A stretch of 64,000 nt of DNA from Neorhizobium alkalisoli (GTDB lineage Bacteria > Pseudomonadota > Alphaproteobacteria > Rhizobiales > Rhizobiaceae), in NCBI RefSeq assembly GCF_007829835.1, contig NZ_VIWP01000002.1, forward strand, positions 372,001 through 436,000, in the 5' to 3' direction. Under the pieces are notes generated by a model. The model saw nothing but the letters and a program-made list of their open reading frames with translations, did not search any database and was not told the DNA's origin. The translations under genes were made by a program, and so were the position numbers. How positions within the stretch are numbered: position 1 is the stretch's first letter; each line of letters begins with the position of its first letter. Below are positions 22,463-29,870 of the stretch, piece after piece.

Positions 22463-22597
22463 GCGCGAAATCTCTCCATTAGATTGTAAAAATCCCTTCA
22501 TGGAAACTTCATCGGGGCGTTAATCTACCATCACGTGTCCGTCATGTGGCCCGCCTATCCGGTTGTCATTCCAGACCCGCCAACCACAGGTGATCCC

Positions 22598-23953
22598 ATG
22601 ACGAGACTTCTGCTTGCTTCCGTTGCTTTGGCTGCGCTTTTCGCCGGCGCCGCATCTGCCGACGACAAGGCCTTCACCGCAACGCTCGCCGGCCAGGCGA
22701 TCCTGCCGGCCAACACGGTCGTTCCGGCGCCGGCCGACGCACCGGCCTCGCTCAAGACCTCCGGCAAGTTCACCACGCCGGATCGCAAGCGCACCGACAA
22801 GCTCGGCACCGTCGATGGCAAGGACGCAGCCCGTGTGACCGACATCAAGCTGCCGCTCGACGGCCAGCCGATCCAGGGTTTTTCGGGCATCAAGAAGATG
22901 GCTGACGGCACGTTCTGGACGCTTTCGGACAATGGTTTCGGCGCCAAGGCAAACTCCTCCGACGCCATGCTTTTCCTGCACCAGATCAAGTTCGACTGGG
23001 CCGGCAATAAGGTTGATGTCGTCAAGAACATCTTCCTCTCCGACCCGAATAAGATCGCGCCCTTCCCGATCGTGACCGAAGCGACCGACACGCGCTACCT
23101 GACCGGCGCCGATTTCGACATCGAGTCGATCCAGCCGGTCGCTGACGGTTTCTGGCTCGGCGAGGAATTCGGTCCCTATCTGATCAAGGTCGATATGGAA
23201 GGCCGCCTGACCGACGTGTTCGCAACCACGGTCGATGGCAAGCCGGTCACCTCGCCCGACAATCCGCTGATCCAGCTGCCGGGCACGCCGGTCGCAAAAA
23301 TGCCGGCCTTCAATCTGAAGCGCTCGGGCGGCTTTGAAGGCCTTGCGATGTCGAAGGATGGTTCGAAGCTTTATGGTCTTCTCGAAGGCCCGATCTTTGT
23401 CGACGGCCAGATGGAGCAGGTGGACGGCAAGACCGCGATCCGCGTCATCGAATTCGATACCGCCGCCAAGAAATGGACCGGCCGCTCCTGGCTCTATCCG
23501 TTCGCCGATAAGGGTATCGCGATCGGCGATTTCAACATGATCGATGAGACGACCGCCCTCGTCATCGAGCGCGACAATGGTGCCGGCACGAAGGACAAGG
23601 CCTGCGCCGATCCGAAGCAGCCGAAGCCGGATTGCTTCGAAGCCCCGGCCGAGCTGAAGCGCGTCTACAAGATCGAATTCAACGACGCCAATGTCGGCAA
23701 GGCCGTCCGCAAGATCGGCTATATCGACCTGCTCGACATCAAGGACCCGAACAACAAGAAGAAAGCCGGCTCCAAGGATGGCATCTATGACATGCCGTTC
23801 GTGACGATCGAAAATGTCGATGTCGTCGACCCGACGCATATCGTCATCGGCAATGACAACAACCTGCCCTTCTCGGCCGGCCGCGCCGTCGACAAGGCTG
23901 ACGATAACGAATTCAGCCTGCTGGAAGTCGGCGAATTCCTCTCGGCCAAGTAA
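22598..23953 (+). CDS. secreted esterase-like phytase-family protein
   Basis: The 451-residue protein has a Sec signal peptide (1-22, ending GAASA) and a long domain of the 'esterase-like activity of phytase' type, a beta-propeller (QGFSGIKKMADGTFWTLSDN, then SIQPVADGFWLGEEFGPYL and ALVIERDNGAGTKD). It has several Asp/Glu-rich loops that may bind calcium. The likely site is the periplasm, and the substrate is unknown, perhaps a phosphate ester. It is followed by its own terminator at 23973-24005. Confidence 0.85.
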   Translation: MTRLLLASVALAALFAGAASADDKAFTATLAGQAILPANTVVPAPADAPASLKTSGKFTTPDRKRTDKLGTVDGKDAARVTDIKLPLDGQPIQGFSGIKKMADGTFWTLSDNGFGAKANSSDAMLFLHQIKFDWAGNKVDVVKNIFLSDPNKIAPFPIVTEATDTRYLTGADFDIESIQPVADGFWLGEEFGPYLIKVDMEGRLTDVFATTVDGKPVTSPDNPLIQLPGTPVAKMPAFNLKRSGGFEGLAMSKDGSKLYGLLEGPIFVDGQMEQVDGKTAIRVIEFDTAAKKWTGRSWLYPFADKGIAIGDFNMIDETTALVIERDNGAGTKDKACADPKQPKPDCFEAPAELKRVYKIEFNDANVGKAVRKIGYIDLLDIKDPNNKKKAGSKDGIYDMPFVTIENVDVVDPTHIVIGNDNNLPFSAGRAVDKADDNEFSLLEVGEFLSAK

Positions 23954-23972
23954 CGATCTCAAATCGGAAAAG

Positions 23973-24005
23973 AAGAGCGTCCGGCGCAAGCTGGGCGCTC
24001 TTTGC
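23973..24005 (+). terminator. rho-independent terminator after the phytase-like gene
   Basis: AAGAGCGTCC (23973-23982) pairs with GGGCGCTCTT (23993-24002) with one G-T pair, followed by a short T-run. It lies 20 bp past the stop at 23953. Confidence 0.75.
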
Positions 24006-24240
24006 ATTTCCGGCCGGATTTTGCGGTCCTCCGAGCGCCTTCATGAAATAGATTTAACGATCATGCGAACTCCCGCTCATCGGGAACAGGCCACGGTCTG
24101 GCGCGACACGCTTCAAAGCCTGAGTCGCGACACCAATCGGGGCGACGCATGTTCTATATTTTCTCAATTTCCAAAGACCTTTTTTCAGTCCTGCGGGCAT
24201 CAGCAGAGGGGACGCAAGACCGCCTTGCGGGTGACCGATA

Positions 24241-25539
24241 ATGTCGGTGGCTGTTACGACCGGCCACGATAGCGGACCTCCTGTGACACGAGAGGATCCG
24301 GAGCTTAGGCGTGACTTCGGCGGCGGTATCATCGGCATACATGCGATCGTGCAGATGGCCTTCGACAGGGCTGATTTTTCACCGCTCTGGAACATGCTGA
24401 TGCAACGTGTCCAAGCCAACCCGTTCGACGCCGCTGCAATCTTCGACATCGCCACCATATTGCAGAGCCTCGGGCGAACCCGCGAAGCACGCCAAACGCT
24501 CGACACGGCTCTTTCACTGCGGCGGAATTTCTGCAGCGTGCATGGTGAAGGCACGGGCCTGAAGCTGCTGGCCTTCGTGACGGCGGGCGATTTCATGGCC
24601 AACACGCCGCTGGATTTTCTTCTGGTCGGTAGCGACTGCGTGCTTCATCTCCACTATGTCGATGCGCAGACACAAACGCTGGACAACCTGCCGGACCATG
24701 ACGTCGCCTTCATGGCGATTGCCGAATCGACAGATAACCTGCCGGTTCTGCGCCATATGGTGGATCTGCTGTCCCTCTATACCGGCACAATCATCAATAA
24801 CCGTCCCGCGCTCGTTGCGGGCCTGACCCGAGACGGCGTCAGCGCCATGCTGGCAAACGAACCCTCCATCCTGTCCCCCGCGACCTTTCGCCTGTCGCGG
24901 GATGTGCTGATGGACATTGCCTGCGGGGAAAAGGCGCTTGCCGACGTCGCGCCAGAGCTTTCCTTCCCGCTCGTTCTGCGACCGGTCAGCACCCATGCCG
25001 GCGAAGGCATGCAGAAGATTGCCGATCCCGGCGAATTGATTGCCATGCTGGCGAGCCAAACGGCTGAGCAGCTTTATGCCGCGCCTTTCATCGATTTTCG
25101 TGGCAGCGACGGACTTTATAACAAGCAGCGCGTCGTGTTCATCAAGGGCCGGCCATTCGCCAGTCATATGGCTCTCTCAGATCACTGGATCGTTCATTAT
25201 CTCAGTTCCGGCATGATGACCGACGCCGCGAAACGGGATGTCGAACGCATCTGGATGGAGACCTTTGACCAAGATTATGCGGTCCGGCATGCGGATGCGT
25301 TTTCGGCCCTCTACCGCCATATCGGGCTCGATTATTTCGGCATCGATTGCGCCGAACTGCCGGACGGGCGGCTGCTGGTTTTCGAGGTGGATGTCGCCAT
25401 GGTCGTCCACAACATGGATAGCCCGACGGTGTTTCCTTACAAACACGTTGCCATGCGCAAGCTGTTCGACGCCTTCATTCGGGCGTTCGATCCGGCACGG
25501 GCGGAGGATTTTCTGACGACCAGTGAAACCACGGCGTAA
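24241..25539 (+). CDS. TPR-like plus ATP-grasp (RimK-like) protein, function unknown
   Basis: The 432-residue protein has a helical N-terminal TPR-like part at about 35-95 (NPFDAAAIFDIATILQSLGR). A C-terminal ATP-grasp ligase fold follows at about 235-425: a nucleotide-binding strand (FPLVLRPVSTHAGEGMQKI), the catalytic region near SDHWIVHYLSSG, and the Mg-ligand set GIDCAELPDG and LLVFEVDVAMVVHNMD. ATP-grasp enzymes join an acid to an amine using ATP; the substrate here is unknown. No peptide precursor or partner is adjacent. The start is the ATG at 24241. Confidence 0.75.
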   Translation: MSVAVTTGHDSGPPVTREDPELRRDFGGGIIGIHAIVQMAFDRADFSPLWNMLMQRVQANPFDAAAIFDIATILQSLGRTREARQTLDTALSLRRNFCSVHGEGTGLKLLAFVTAGDFMANTPLDFLLVGSDCVLHLHYVDAQTQTLDNLPDHDVAFMAIAESTDNLPVLRHMVDLLSLYTGTIINNRPALVAGLTRDGVSAMLANEPSILSPATFRLSRDVLMDIACGEKALADVAPELSFPLVLRPVSTHAGEGMQKIADPGELIAMLASQTAEQLYAAPFIDFRGSDGLYNKQRVVFIKGRPFASHMALSDHWIVHYLSSGMMTDAAKRDVERIWMETFDQDYAVRHADAFSALYRHIGLDYFGIDCAELPDGRLLVFEVDVAMVVHNMDSPTVFPYKHVAMRKLFDAFIRAFDPARAEDFLTTSETTA

Positions 25540-25631
25540 GCGAAAAGAATGCCGCCCTGGCAGGCCGGGGCGGCACATTCGTCAGGCTTCATCGCCTGCA
25601 TTATCGGTTTCGAGCGGTGAAAACCGCGGGC

Positions 25632-26633
25632 TCAAAGCGCAGCTTTGACCTTTTCCGCGACTTCCGGGCTGACCCACTGCGTCCAGACTTCCGGCCGGTT
25701 CTTCATGAAATAACGGGCCGCATCGTCATTGGTGCCCTGGTTGTCGACCTGCCAGGCAAGGATGCTGTTGACCGTGTCATTGGTCCATTTGCGCTTCTTC
25801 AGGTAATCCATGGCAATACCCGCCTTTTCGGCGAACTGCTTTGTCACGACGCTGTAGACGGCCGAGACCGGATAGGAATTGACCTTCGGGTTGGCGCAAT
25901 CCGTCACAGACGTGCAGGCATCCCATTCGGTCTTGTCATGCGGCACGCCGAAGGAGAGCTTGACCATCTGATACTTGCCGAGGATCGCGGTCGGCGACCA
26001 GTAATAACCGAGCCAGCCGGTCTTGTTCTCGAAGGCGCGGGTGATCGTGCCGTCGAGTGCGGCACCGGAACCGGTCTCGACCAGTTCAAATCCCTTCTTC
26101 TCTGCGCCGAGCGCGCGATAAAGATTGCCGAGCGAGGACTGGCACTGCCAGCCGGGCGGGCAATTGTAGATGGCGGCCTTGGACTTGTCGTCCGGCGCCG
26201 GAAAGAGCTCGGGATGCTCCAGCGCCTGCTGCACGGTCTTGATATCCGGGTGGGCGTCGGCCAGGAATTTCGGGATCCACCAGCCATCGACGCCGCCTTC
26301 CGACAGGATATCGGCGGCAATCACCAGCCGACCTTCGCCAACGGCCTTGTCGAGCGGCGTGCGCACGGCATTGATCCAGAGTTCCGGCGCGATATCCGGC
26401 TGGCCCTTTTCGTTCATGGAGGTAAAGGTCGGCAGCGTATCGCCGGTGACGAGCTCGACCGAGCAGCCATACCCTTCCTGGAGGATGATCTTGTCGACAT
26501 TGGCCGCGACGCCGGCAGAGGCCCAGTTCATCTCGGCAATCGTCACCGTGCCGCAATCGGCAGCATGGGCGTTACCGGCAAGGGCGTAAAGGGATGCGGC
26601 AAAGGCGGCTGCAGCCACCAGTTTGTTCTTCAT
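25632..26633 (-). CDS. ABC transporter substrate-binding protein, glycine betaine/ProX (OpuAC) type
   Basis: The 333-residue protein has a Sec signal peptide (about 1-25, ending NAHA) and the OpuAC two-lobed fold. Trp residues that could stack on a quaternary amine are seen in ELWINAVRT, GWWIPKFLAD and GYYWSPTAI. It should bind betaine, proline betaine or choline in the periplasm. Permease and ATPase genes are absent from this region, so it is an orphan or serves a transporter elsewhere. I chose the ATG at 26633, which has GGAGG 8 bases upstream; a TTG six bases earlier is less likely. Confidence 0.85.
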   Translation of the reverse strand: MKNKLVAAAAFAASLYALAGNAHAADCGTVTIAEMNWASAGVAANVDKIILQEGYGCSVELVTGDTLPTFTSMNEKGQPDIAPELWINAVRTPLDKAVGEGRLVIAADILSEGGVDGWWIPKFLADAHPDIKTVQQALEHPELFPAPDDKSKAAIYNCPPGWQCQSSLGNLYRALGAEKKGFELVETGSGAALDGTITRAFENKTGWLGYYWSPTAILGKYQMVKLSFGVPHDKTEWDACTSVTDCANPKVNSYPVSAVYSVVTKQFAEKAGIAMDYLKKRKWTNDTVNSILAWQVDNQGTNDDAARYFMKNRPEVWTQWVSPEVAEKVKAAL

Positions 26634-26686
26634 GTTCAAGACCTCCAGGCCTCAGGCGTTGGCAATATTCTGATCGGGCGCCGCCC

Positions 26687-26701
26687 GCGGAGAAACTCCG
26701 C
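26687..26701. promoter_or_regulatory. small hairpin upstream of the betaine-binding gene
   Basis: GCGGAG (26687-26692) pairs with CTCCGC (26696-26701) around AAA. It lies in the 203-bp gap between the betaine-binding protein gene and the short paralog, just past the stop of the latter on the same strand. It has no U-tract; it may be a weak terminator or an attenuator. The rest of the gap shows nothing I recognise. Confidence 0.3.
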
Positions 26702-26836
26702 CGGCCAGGCACGCGCCATCGCCATAAGTCAGCGAGATAACGTTTACATTACGCCCGGCTAAATACCGGCGCCTGCCCACAGGAAAGATGGCGTCCTCAA
26801 GCTCGCGTATCGACACGCCAGGAACTAGAGCCTGCT

Positions 26837-27553
26837 TCACGAGGCATGCCCCTGCTTTATGAGCAGCGAGACGAGATCGGCATCGCCAGGGACAATCGTA
26901 CCCCACGAATTTCCGCCCCATTCCCAACCTGTGTTCATGTCGAATGACAGAGAACGCTGCTGCTCCCGATCCACGGAGACAAGCAATGCCTGACTGCAGG
27001 AGCCACCATGCCCCGCAGATGGCGTATACTTTTCCAATGCCGTTCCCGGGTTCGCTGGCTGGGTCGTGAAGAGCAGAAGACAGCGAGGTAAGGGCGTCGC
27101 GACATTGATCTGATGACCGTAAAGAGGAACCGCATAGATTGGCGCCGGAACGTCGGAGCCCAGGACCATACGCGACAGACCGGAGGTAAACTGGTGTCCG
27201 GTCTCGTTTATCATGGTGATTGCGGACAACACGCCTTCGGATTTGACCTCTCCTCCACCACCCGCATGAACCAAGAAAGTCTCTCCTGGTTCAACGACCG
27301 TTTCAAATCCAGGCGCGATCACTCGACCAGCACGAATGGGGCTAGAGGATGTGTAAGCCCCAACCGACAGCGACCATTCCAATGCCATCCGTGGCATGAT
27401 GTCTCGAGTTGAAAAGGCAACCGTCGGACGCGCCGCTGCGTTGGCCATTGCCGTCGCAAAAAGCAGGCTGAGGGAATACCCTCCCTTCAAGAGTGCATCG
27501 ACCGTGGCCGAAGAGAGGGCGATATCGACGATATAGGTGGCTTTGGTCGCCAT
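26837..27553 (-). CDS. uncharacterised beta-rich protein, short paralog of the 27.7-28.7 kb gene
   Basis: I do not recognise this family. The 238-residue protein has no signal peptide, no membrane helix and no cysteine cluster, and is rich in short strands. Its whole length aligns by eye with the C-terminal two thirds of the next protein upstream: ATVDALLKGGYSL matches ATVTALSNGNYLL, WSLSVGAYTSSSPI matches WEIQYQAYTSRSEI, VPLYGHQI matches FPLYGNGL, and SFDMNTGWEWGGNSW matches SFDINKGWSWGGYSW. It shares the strand with that paralog, 101 bp downstream, and probably the transcript. It may act as a homo- or hetero-oligomer with the long paralog. Confidence 0.7.
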   Translation of the reverse strand: MATKATYIVDIALSSATVDALLKGGYSLSLLFATAMANAAARPTVAFSTRDIMPRMALEWSLSVGAYTSSSPIRAGRVIAPGFETVVEPGETFLVHAGGGGEVKSEGVLSAITMINETGHQFTSGLSRMVLGSDVPAPIYAVPLYGHQINVATPLPRCLLLFTTQPANPGTALEKYTPSAGHGGSCSQALLVSVDREQQRSLSFDMNTGWEWGGNSWGTIVPGDADLVSLLIKQGHAS

Positions 27554-27654
27554 ATGACAATCTCCGCGCCTTCGGAAAGACCTGTGCGCTGTCGCGAAGA
27601 CAAACGGCAGCGCAGCGCACGACCGTTTGTCCTGTTCATTCCCGGAGGTTCTGA

Positions 27655-28656
27655 TCAGGCTGCGTCGATCAGCAGCGGTACGACATTCGAGTCCGCCTCG
27701 ACCTTCTGAGCCCAGCTATATCCTCCCCACGACCATCCCTTGTTGATGTCGAATGACACCGCCCTGTGGGTGCTGCTCGTGAGGTCGATCAGGATGCTCT
27801 GGCTGTAGGCCTGCTCGATCACGGTTCCGGTGTTCACCACCTTGGTCGAAAAGGTGAGAAGCACCTTCTGAATAGGAACCATGGCATCCAGGCCGTTGCC
27901 ATAAAGGGGGAACGCGCACAGCGGCTGGGCAGTGCCTTCGACGACTTCGGAAATACCGCAGGTCATCTGATCCGTGGTGAGATTGAGAATAGAGATATTG
28001 CCCGGATCACCCTCAACGACATTGCCGGAACCCTGCGGTGTCTGAACCTTGAGCTTCTGGCCGAGGTTGATGTTGTACGGGGTCAAACCCTTGATCTGCC
28101 CGTTGGGGATGATCTCAGATCGGGATGTATAGGCCTGGTACTGGATTTCCCAGCTGACATCCGTCTCCGTTCCGTAATCGGCTGACTTGAACCAGACGAG
28201 CGGCCTGCCTCCCCCCATATTCGCCTGAACACCTTTGAAACCGTAGAGCAGGTAATTGCCGTTGGAGAGAGCGGTAACTGTCGCATCCGTCATCTGAATA
28301 GCGACGCCATAACTCGTGGCGCCGAGAAGATTGCCCATTGTCGGTTCCAGCGGTCCGAAAGACCGGTCCGCCGGACCATCGGATGATGTTGCCGCAGCGA
28401 CTTTTCCCGCGACCCACATGACGCTCAGTCCCTTGAAACCGAGCTGGGAGCCTGCAAATTCCAGGGGGTTGATCGCCATATCGCCAGGTCCCTTGGCGAT
28501 CACCCGCTTGGTTGAGGCCTCTTCATATATGTAAAGATTGGGATCATATACCTCCGGATTACTCTGATTTTCCCCGGCCTTTTTGATGATATTATGCACG
28601 TCACCCTTGTGGATGTTTTTCGACATGCACTCGAAATAATAGGCGCCCTTTGCCAT
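27655..28656 (-). CDS. uncharacterised beta-rich protein, long paralog with N-terminal extension
   Basis: The 333-residue protein consists of an extra N-terminal region of about 110 residues (MAKGAYYFECMSKNIHKGDV, with a predicted small alpha/beta stretch) and a C-terminal domain paralogous to the short gene downstream. The shared end motif is SFDINKGWSWGGYSW. No signal peptide or known catalytic motif is visible. A strong Shine-Dalgarno GGAGAGG lies 8 bases before the ATG at 28656. It sits between the short paralog and an AraC-type regulator, all on the minus strand; the pair is probably under that regulator's control. Confidence 0.7.
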   Translation of the reverse strand: MAKGAYYFECMSKNIHKGDVHNIIKKAGENQSNPEVYDPNLYIYEEASTKRVIAKGPGDMAINPLEFAGSQLGFKGLSVMWVAGKVAAATSSDGPADRSFGPLEPTMGNLLGATSYGVAIQMTDATVTALSNGNYLLYGFKGVQANMGGGRPLVWFKSADYGTETDVSWEIQYQAYTSRSEIIPNGQIKGLTPYNINLGQKLKVQTPQGSGNVVEGDPGNISILNLTTDQMTCGISEVVEGTAQPLCAFPLYGNGLDAMVPIQKVLLTFSTKVVNTGTVIEQAYSQSILIDLTSSTHRAVSFDINKGWSWGGYSWAQKVEADSNVVPLLIDAA

Positions 28657-28834
28657 GGCAAAGCCCTCTCCTGGTTGATGTGAAAGATATTGGTCCGGAC
28701 ACGGACTTTCGTTTTGGAACCGGCCCGATGCCCGGCAGTTCTTCTGCTTCCCGGAGAATGCGAAGCCTGTTCGCATCCCAGAGTTGCCACACCAATCTAC
28801 GCAACCATTGGTTATTTTCTTTTGGCGCAATCAC

Positions 28835-29614
28835 TCATGCTTGTGATCGCATCATCATCCGGCGATACGCGCTTGGAGAGAGCCCCCTGCTCTGCCGGAA
28901 AGCCGTGGCGAAATTTGCCGGCTCGCCGTAACCGACTGCAAAGCCGATCTCACCGATGGAAAGCGTCGAGGTTCGTAGCAGCCTTGCGGCCTCATCGAGC
29001 CTCCGCTCCCGCAACCAGGCGTATGGACCTATGCCCAGGACATTCCTGAAGGCGCGCGTCAGCGAGTTGTGATTTGAACCCATATGCCGGGCCAGAGCAT
29101 GCAGGGAAAACTCGGCCACGATATCCTTGACCAGGAAGGCGCATGTGTCGTTGACCAGCTTGCGCTCCTTTGCTGTGGCGCGGTGCGAGCTGCCGGCGTC
29201 TATCGCCTCCGCGAACGATGCTTCTGGAAGCGGCCAGCGAAGGACACGGAAAGCGGCAACGGTACCGAGGCGTGTCGCCAGCTCCATGGCAAGAAAAGGA
29301 TAATAGACAATATCGCTGAAACCGGCCGCAAAAAGCGCCGCCCGTTCCTTGTGTCCGCTGTTCACGACAGCCAGAACAGGGATGCCGCTATGCCGGCACT
29401 GGGCGAGAAGTTGCGGTGAAGCCCGTTTGCCGGTGTCGATCTCGACCATGTCGGCAAGGATGACCAGATCCTTTTCATCGCCGCTGAGCCCCAGCTTGCC
29501 CGATGCCGAAATCTCACCGCGGCACCCTTCGAGCACCGCCATATTGGCCATGAATTCCTCGGCCCGTTGCTCGGCGGCGCATACGAAATGCACGCGAAGG
29601 CCGTAGTCGGGCAT
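28835..29614 (-). CDS. AraC family regulator with degenerate receiver-like N-terminal domain
   Basis: The 259-residue protein has a C-terminal AraC double HTH at about 155-255 (LHALARHMGSNHNSLTRAFR, then IGEIGFAVGYGEPANFATAF). The N-terminal 120 residues look like a receiver domain: strand DLVILADMVEID, GIPVLAVVNSG in place of the usual strand 4/Thr, and FSDIVYYPFL where receivers have a Lys-Pro-Phe. The Lys is Tyr here, so phosphorylation control is probably lost and another signal is used. No kinase gene is adjacent. It heads the set with the two paralogs downstream on the same strand. Confidence 0.75.
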   Translation of the reverse strand: MPDYGLRVHFVCAAEQRAEEFMANMAVLEGCRGEISASGKLGLSGDEKDLVILADMVEIDTGKRASPQLLAQCRHSGIPVLAVVNSGHKERAALFAAGFSDIVYYPFLAMELATRLGTVAAFRVLRWPLPEASFAEAIDAGSSHRATAKERKLVNDTCAFLVKDIVAEFSLHALARHMGSNHNSLTRAFRNVLGIGPYAWLRERRLDEAARLLRTSTLSIGEIGFAVGYGEPANFATAFRQSRGLSPSAYRRMMMRSQA

Positions 29615-29694
29615 CGCGACCTATCCTGTTTCAACAATAGTCGGTAACGGCGGCTACGGTTGAGAGGAATAAAACCCAAACACCCAAAAGCAAC

Positions 29695-29754
29695 CTAGGA
29701 TTTTCATCCTAGATGAAGAACAAAAGAAGTACAACTTTAGATTTTACGAAGTTG
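29695..29754. promoter_or_regulatory. two inverted repeats upstream of the AraC gene
   Basis: CTAGGAT (29695-29701) and ATCCTAG (29706-29712) form a perfect 7-bp inverted repeat with a 4-base gap. CAACTT (29732-29737) and AAGTTG (29749-29754) form a second with an 11-base gap. The stretch 29670-29770 is clearly richer in A/T than its surroundings and holds the start region of the AraC-type regulator. These are candidate operator sites. No other feature is visible between 29615 and 29870. Confidence 0.45.
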
Positions 29755-29870
29755 CAAAAAACTGCCCGAGGCAGCATATGCGAACACGTCTCAGACGCGC
29801 GGAAAGGATGCAGACCGCCTTGCCCGACTGAATTCATCGCGGCAGGACGGCCCTCACAACCGATATGGGA

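What the first reader, a model, noticed from the sequence alone, without database searches (positions are those of the whole stretch)
26837..29754. Two paralogous uncharacterised proteins behind an AraC regulator
The 238- and 333-residue proteins are clearly homologous over about 225 residues (shared blocks include WGG-SW near the C terminus), match no family I know, and lie together on the minus strand downstream of an AraC-type regulator. The upstream 100 bp are A/T-rich with two inverted repeats. The long one has an extra 110-residue N-terminal module. The set looks like a small horizontally acquired system in which two forms of one domain may form a mixed complex.
Basis: partly seen in the sequence, partly recalled or inferred. 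Interest (0 to 1): 0.78.

Follow-up and report, generated by a model that had tools for sequence, protein, structure and literature searches.

The report
Paired sister proteins, unknown accessory system
Two sister proteins of an unnamed family sit side by side under their own regulator in a soil-type bacterium, and similar two-gene sets recur, rarely but with a steady layout, in distantly related bacteria, so this looks like a small mobile two-part system whose job is still unknown.

Summary
P0001 (238 aa, gene B) and P0002 (333 aa, gene A) are true paralogues (33% over 227 aa, E 4e-35) behind an AraC-type regulator. Neither matches Pfam, NCBIfam, PHROGs or PADLOC; P0002 and a family profile match no PDB sequence at E 1. 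AlphaFold2 gives both a confident all-beta domain without a clear fold match; A adds an 84-residue ferredoxin-like module.

The pair recurs, sparsely, in Proteobacteria, Myxococcota and Bacteroidota. Of 25 loci with intact A, 22 have an intact B next downstream (in 7 after one small gene), 1 a broken B, 2 none. A is conserved, B diverges faster, and their distances correlate (r 0.85). AraC relatives of the same type precede 7 of 8 A genes with the module and 0 of 17 without. A stable hairpin lies before B in 20 of 21 gaps, against 15 of 42 control gaps.

The set lies in a 5.9-kb block that 14 of 29 inspected same-genus relatives lack there.

Most likely: an accessory two-subunit system (major A, minor B) under a dedicated regulator, laid out like AidA/PixA pairs but without detectable homology to them.

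The parts
26837..27553 (-). gene B (P0001, 238 aa): single all-beta domain, faster-evolving partner
27597..27633 (-). intercistronic RNA hairpin between A and B (stem of 17 positions, one mismatch allowed, loop 3), starting 22 nt after the A stop codon
   Evidence: p 0.003 against dinucleotide shuffles
27655..28656 (-). gene A (P0002, 333 aa): N-terminal module, linker, all-beta domain; conserved partner
27658..28320 (-). shared all-beta domain of A (residues 113-333)
28321..28404 (-). linker of A (residues 85-112); pLDDT under 50 in residues 86-110
28405..28656 (-). N-terminal ferredoxin-like (beta-alpha-beta-beta-alpha-beta) module of A (residues 1-84)
28835..29614 (-). AraC-type regulator (P0003, 259 aa), HTH at residues 174-252; N-terminal half without a Pfam match at E 1
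29655..29754 (.). A/T-rich stretch upstream of araC with two short inverted repeats
29761..29775 (-). intrinsic-terminator-like site behind ppx, which would separate the araC-A-B set from the ppk-ppx transcript (consensus match only)
24010..29866 (.). genus-variable block (ATP-grasp-like gene, ChoX-like binding protein, pair, araC; the first two named by eye) between ppx and a phytase-like gene; 0.4-1.3 kb in the 14 relatives where both flanks were seen

Best explanation
A small accessory system: a dedicated regulator (here AraC-type) controls two paralogous all-beta proteins. A is the conserved, probably more abundant subunit; B is the faster-changing, probably less abundant one; the hairpin between the genes sets their unequal output. 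Neither shows a signal peptide by eye, so they act in the cytoplasm or leave by a non-Sec route. They most likely assemble with each other and bind a target or build a deposit, with A's N-terminal module as an exchangeable add-on. In layout this resembles the AidA/PixA pairs. Shown: paralogy, conserved pairing and order, correlated divergence, purifying selection, hairpin, regulator association in one clade, variable genomic position. Inferred: regulation of A and B by the adjacent gene, unequal output, assembly, role.
For: Intact B next downstream of A in 22 of 25 loci, in 7 of them after one small gene. Paired distance matrices correlate, r 0.85, Mantel p 0.0005, n 22. In the three genomes outside the window's that I searched whole by locus, the pair are the only two members, 3 of 3. 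dN/dS below 1 for both in 6 of 6 locus pairs, lower for A in 5 of 6. Hairpin in 20 of 21 A-B gaps against 15 of 42 other same-strand gaps (Fisher 3e-6), 3 of 20 stretches after B and 3 of 19 before A, 1 of 12 windows inside A. AraC of the same type (BLAST E 3e-23 or better to P0003) in 7 of 8 module-bearing loci and 0 of 17 others; within the genus this AraC at E 1e-30 is found only in the genome with the pair, 1 of 57. The distant branch repeats the layout: AraC-type genes upstream of tandem members in L097, L098, L101 and an XRE-type gene in L099. Three AidA/PixA pairs have a hairpin behind their first gene, two of them significant (p 0.007, 0.020, 0.066).
Against: No complex was modelled or measured. 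The hairpin may be a plain terminator in some loci (T-runs in L040 and L041), with B transcribed alone; 36% of ordinary same-strand gaps also carry a significant hairpin. Two loci have A alone (L039, L042), and the two Vibrio plasmid loci that I read have a single gene, so B is not always needed. The tree does not make A or B one clade (5 and 4 changes), and in Skermanella and Sorangium A and B of one locus group together. The AraC-module link lies within one clade, so its Fisher value overstates independence. L025 has module and pair without the AraC. No function can be read from conserved residues.
Confidence: 0.42

Rival explanations
1. A secreted or surface two-part binding protein (lectin-, adhesin- or pore-like), leaving the cell by a type I or other non-Sec route.
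Confidence: 0.25
2. An AidA/PixA-like stationary-phase or density-regulated deposit (inclusion) system, reached by convergence.
For: Same layout: two paralogous, mostly beta proteins side by side, often on accessory replicons, with a hairpin behind the first gene; the BCAS0292-aidA operon is described so in PMC9060813 (passages).
Against: No sequence relation found (hhalign probability 0.1-0.3%); no evidence of inclusions; sizes differ (about 220-residue domain against 173-191 aa).
Confidence: 0.2
3. A toxin-immunity or defence pair.
For: Sparse, mobile, two adjacent genes of which one diverges faster.
Against: The partners are paralogues of one fold; no PADLOC match for P0001 to P0003; no enzyme family recognised; loci without B exist.
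Confidence: 0.08

Closest known systems
AidA/PixA family (Pfam PF12306; Burkholderia BCAS0292-aidA operon, Xenorhabdus PixA)
   Same: Two paralogous, mostly-beta proteins side by side; often plasmid-borne; hairpin behind the first gene in the three pairs tested, significant in two.
   Different: No detectable homology; about 220-residue domain; A may carry an N-terminal module; adjacent AraC-type regulator here.
Ig-like/CnaB pilin and adhesin domains (BcpA 3kpt, FctB 3klq, others)
   Different: The match is within the range of unrelated models; no secretion signal seen by eye.
PUD-1/PUD-2 heterodimer (4jde)
   Different: Nematode proteins (recalled); Z too low to mean a shared fold.

Membership tests
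AidA/PixA (PF12306) | sequence match to the family profile | tested here: not met
   no PF12306 match at E 1 for P0001 and P0002 nor for nine further family members; profile-profile probability 0.1 and 0.3% (the PixA profile had 9 sequences, so sensitivity is limited)
AidA/PixA (PF12306) | fold of 4lzk/4q52/4pib | tested here: inconclusive
   not in the rows shown for the P0001 model; absence there does not exclude it
AidA/PixA (PF12306) | accumulation as stationary-phase inclusions | not testable with these tools
   no expression or microscopy data
Ig-like pilin/adhesin | Ig-like beta-sandwich | tested here: inconclusive
Ig-like pilin/adhesin | export signal and assembly machinery | not tested
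   no signal-peptide predictor run; none seen by eye; no dedicated exporter among the listed shared clusters
AraC family regulator (P0003) | AraC-type HTH domain | tested here: met
   HTH_18 E 3.3e-23, 82.2 bits against a cut-off of 33.6
known anti-phage systems | match to PADLOC models | tested here: not met
   none at E 0.01 for P0001, P0002, P0003

The most novel reading that the evidence does not exclude
An undescribed protein family whose members work as major/minor pairs (A in excess, B limiting, ratio set by an intercistronic hairpin) that build a new kind of protein assembly; A displays exchangeable N-terminal modules, and the cassette is passed around with interchangeable regulators across several phyla.
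Probability: 0.2. Interest if true: 0.75.

Novelty: new variant of a known kind. Interest (0 to 1): 0.5.

Why it matters
A family that I could not find in Pfam, NCBIfam, PHROGs or PADLOC nevertheless keeps one layout (A, sometimes a small protein, hairpin, B, often behind a regulator) from Rhizobium to Sorangium and Flavobacterium. If the pair assembles, it gives a compact model for how cells fix the ratio of two paralogous subunits. The similar layout of the unrelated AidA/PixA pairs suggests a repeated solution worth testing side by side.

Tried and rejected
Known family: P0001 and P0002 have no match at E 1 in Pfam, NCBIfam or PHROGs. For relatives and one small protein there are scattered weak matches (E 0.012-0.27), each to a different unrelated family; those from Pfam and NCBIfam are below cut-off. 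PDB by sequence: none for P0002 at E 1; two rows at E 1.6 and 9.1 for profile A4. P0001 alone was not compared with PDB sequences. PixA homology: not detectable, although the layout is alike; the PixA structures 4lzk, 4q52 and 4pib are not among the fold rows shown for P0001, which proves nothing. Phage or viral origin: no relative in viral contigs, no BFVD match at E 0.001. Foldseek for P0002 lists two rows under E 0.001 (RNA polymerase II complexes, rmsd about 30), which I hold to be artefacts. Homology of the small proteins between Halomonas-type and distant loci: not shown (hhalign probability 3.5%). Papers: a search by accession and locus tag hit 8 papers, the 5 listed all through the loose term 'vicrs' and none through a gene of this family; a search on subunit hairpins returned nothing. 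Of I saw listings only; PMC9060813 was seen as passages; one search returned nothing.

Limits. The genome scan used two short peptide patterns, so its 23 loci are a sample biased to the A type. Gene calls in unannotated loci are mechanical. Some loci are close kin (four Halomonadaceae L030-L033, L036/L044, L040/L041, L037/L038), so counts are not fully independent. The control gaps rest on rough gene calls. The reference set contains at least one antisense call (22520-24007, minus), so its ranks are rough. The second Rhizobium plasmid record (NZ_CP020910) was seen only as a hit, and L043 (A broken) was left out of the 25. L028 (gap 16 nt) was left out of the 21 hairpin gaps. The 'after B' control left out L032 and L033; the 'before A' control left out the window, L032 and L033. 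A Fisher value for the 'after B' control was computed with 4 instead of the correct 3 and is not used. In the distant branch I tested four gaps: p 0.63, 0.007, 0.003 and 0.050. Identity of the module in L026 is by alignment and eye; the module was modelled only for P0002.

Full report
What is there. On the minus strand lie, in order of transcription, an AraC-type regulator (28835-29614), gene A (P0002, 27655-28656, 333 aa) and gene B (P0001, 26837-27553, 238 aa). A and B share 33% identity over 227 residues, E 4e-35, and are the only two members found in the 7.03 Mb genome. The A/T-rich stretch with two short inverted repeats lies upstream of araC; the repeats are only weakly above chance. A terminator-like site on the minus strand behind ppx would make araC-A-B its own unit.

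No known family. P0001 and P0002 have no match at E 1 in Pfam or NCBIfam or PHROGs and none in PADLOC at E 0.01. P0002 matches no PDB sequence at E 1; a family profile gives two rows at E 1.6 and 9.1. Nine further family members and one small neighbour protein gave only scattered weak Pfam or NCBIfam matches, all below cut-off.

Distribution. Tblastn of P0002 on 72,556 plasmids found 14 records: Rhizobium 2, Skermanella 2, Vibrio 10. A scan of genome contigs with alignment A2 gave 23 loci, L022-L044, from Rhizobiales, Maricaulis, Sorangium, Nitrosomonas, Halomonadaceae, Caulobacterales, Oleisolibacter, Afifella, Roseivirga and Flavobacterium. It is rare: 1 of 60 genomes near the window's with P0002 (the own one), 2 of 385 of the class, 5 of 398 of the phylum, 7 of 297 of the family, of which 5 hold only distant members, 3 of 151 of the family of G784 and 1 of 200 of the order of G755; the own or centre genome is among the hits in each. 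Viral contigs: none. A distant branch was found with profile A1, which holds none of it (E 2e-10 to 4e-5).

Conserved pair. I counted 25 loci with an intact A: the window, L003, L004, L022-L042 and L044. In 22 an intact B follows on the same strand, in 7 of them after one small gene; in L003 B is broken; L039 and L042 have none. L043 has a broken A and is not counted. Searched whole, the genomes of L028, L029 and L041 hold the pair and no other member, 3 of 3. The tree keeps the Rhizobiales-Maricaulis A proteins together (100/100) and their B proteins together (100/98), so that split is older than those lineages; but A and B as wholes are not single clades (5 and 4 changes), and in Skermanella and Sorangium A and B of one locus group together. 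A and B distances correlate over 22 loci (r 0.85, Mantel p 0.0005), and mean distance is 0.49 for A and 0.69 for B. In 6 locus pairs dN/dS is 0.04-0.23 for A and 0.17-0.45 for B (A lower in 5 of 6): both are kept by selection, A as a rule more strictly.

Modules and regulators. The ferredoxin-like module is present in 8 of the 25 A proteins (window, L003, L022-L027; by alignment and eye); Sorangium and Nitrosomonas have other N-terminal parts of about 90-100 residues, and the other 15 have none. Elsewhere the upstream gene is a LuxR-type response regulator (L029), an XRE-type gene (L034, L036; L044 by homology) or nothing I recognised; L041 has a different AraC-like gene two genes before A (E 8e-8 to P0003). 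Of five distant-branch loci from the family search, AraC-type genes precede tandem members in L097, L098 and L101, an XRE-type gene in L099, and L100 has a single member; the distant loci L018-L021 were not tested this way. Within the genus, P0003 at E 1e-30 occurs only in this genome, 1 of 57. Large AAA ATPase genes lie near in 8 loci (domains checked in three).

Hairpin. Between A and B there is a stable hairpin of differing sequence, starting 11-61 nt after the A stop in 14 loci; in the 7 loci with an extra small gene it lies after that gene. Against dinucleotide shuffles 20 of 21 gaps reach p below 0.05 (L033: 0.056). Controls: 15 of 42 other same-strand gaps of 70-400 nt (Fisher 3e-6), 3 of 20 stretches after B and 3 of 19 before A, 1 of 12 windows inside A. 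T-runs follow in L040 and L041 and shorter ones in some others, so some may be terminators. I infer unequal output of A and B; this was not measured.

Acquisition. Of 57 genus genomes with ppx, 30 loci were fetched, one of them the window's own. In 14 of the 29 others the phytase-like gene that lies at 22535-23953 in the window follows ppx after 0.4-1.3 kb, where the window has 5.9 kb (gene named by eye from its translation). The other 15 show no match to it within the 1.5 kb read and are uninformative. Against 35 mechanically called window genes, B would rank lowest in codon adaptation, araC second and A eighth, while the ChoX-like neighbour ranks high. So araC and B, and less clearly A, look foreign and perhaps joined the block separately. 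Relatives on conjugative Rhizobium plasmids and the broken copies in L003 and L043 fit an accessory trait.

How it may work, and what it is like. The nearest parallel is the AidA/PixA pairs: in B. cenocepacia BCAS0292 and aidA form a two-gene operon of PixA-type proteins, among the most strongly quorum-regulated genes (passages of PMC9060813). PixA-type genes also lie in tandem on Rhizobium leguminosarum plasmids, and three such pairs, two of them close kin, carry a hairpin behind the first gene (p 0.007, 0.020, 0.066). But profile comparison finds no homology (probability 0.1 and 0.3%). It may work like such a system; it did not meet the one membership feature that I could decide. I commit to an accessory two-subunit assembly, A major and B minor, controlled by the adjacent regulator (confidence 0.42); secreted binding protein and inclusion-type deposit are the main rivals.

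Noticed in passing
L080:1511-1615, L079:4520-4623, L075:1368-1491: AidA/PixA tandem pairs carry a hairpin 10-15 nt behind the first gene (p 0.007, 0.020, 0.066), like the unrelated pair of this finding.
   Followed up: partly
L030-L034, L036, L044 between A and B: An extra small protein of about 80 residues is encoded between A and B; no Pfam match in the two copies tested. Similar-sized ones occur in L097 and L101, homology not shown.
   Followed up: partly
L005, L006, L023, L025, L030-L033: Large AAA ATPase genes (with guanylate cyclase domain in L023 and L025, HTH and TPR in L033) recur near the pair or single gene.
   Followed up: partly
L004:11012-16675, L097:6637-9981: A non-ribosomal peptide synthetase gene (L004, as annotated) and an AMP-binding/carrier-protein gene (L097) lie near two family loci.
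   Followed up: no
L041:7198-7683: A gene with the putative adhesin domain Stv (PF21527) lies directly before A in Flavobacterium sp. KJJ.
   Followed up: no
L022, L023, L025, L026, upstream of A: A CTCCTTT...AAAGGAG-like stem that might hide the ribosome site of A; individually weak (p 0.04-0.18).
   Followed up: no
L003:9204-9695 and L043:7860-8361: Broken copies: B in the Rhizobium sp. NXC14 plasmid, A in Bradyrhizobium canariense.
   Followed up: no
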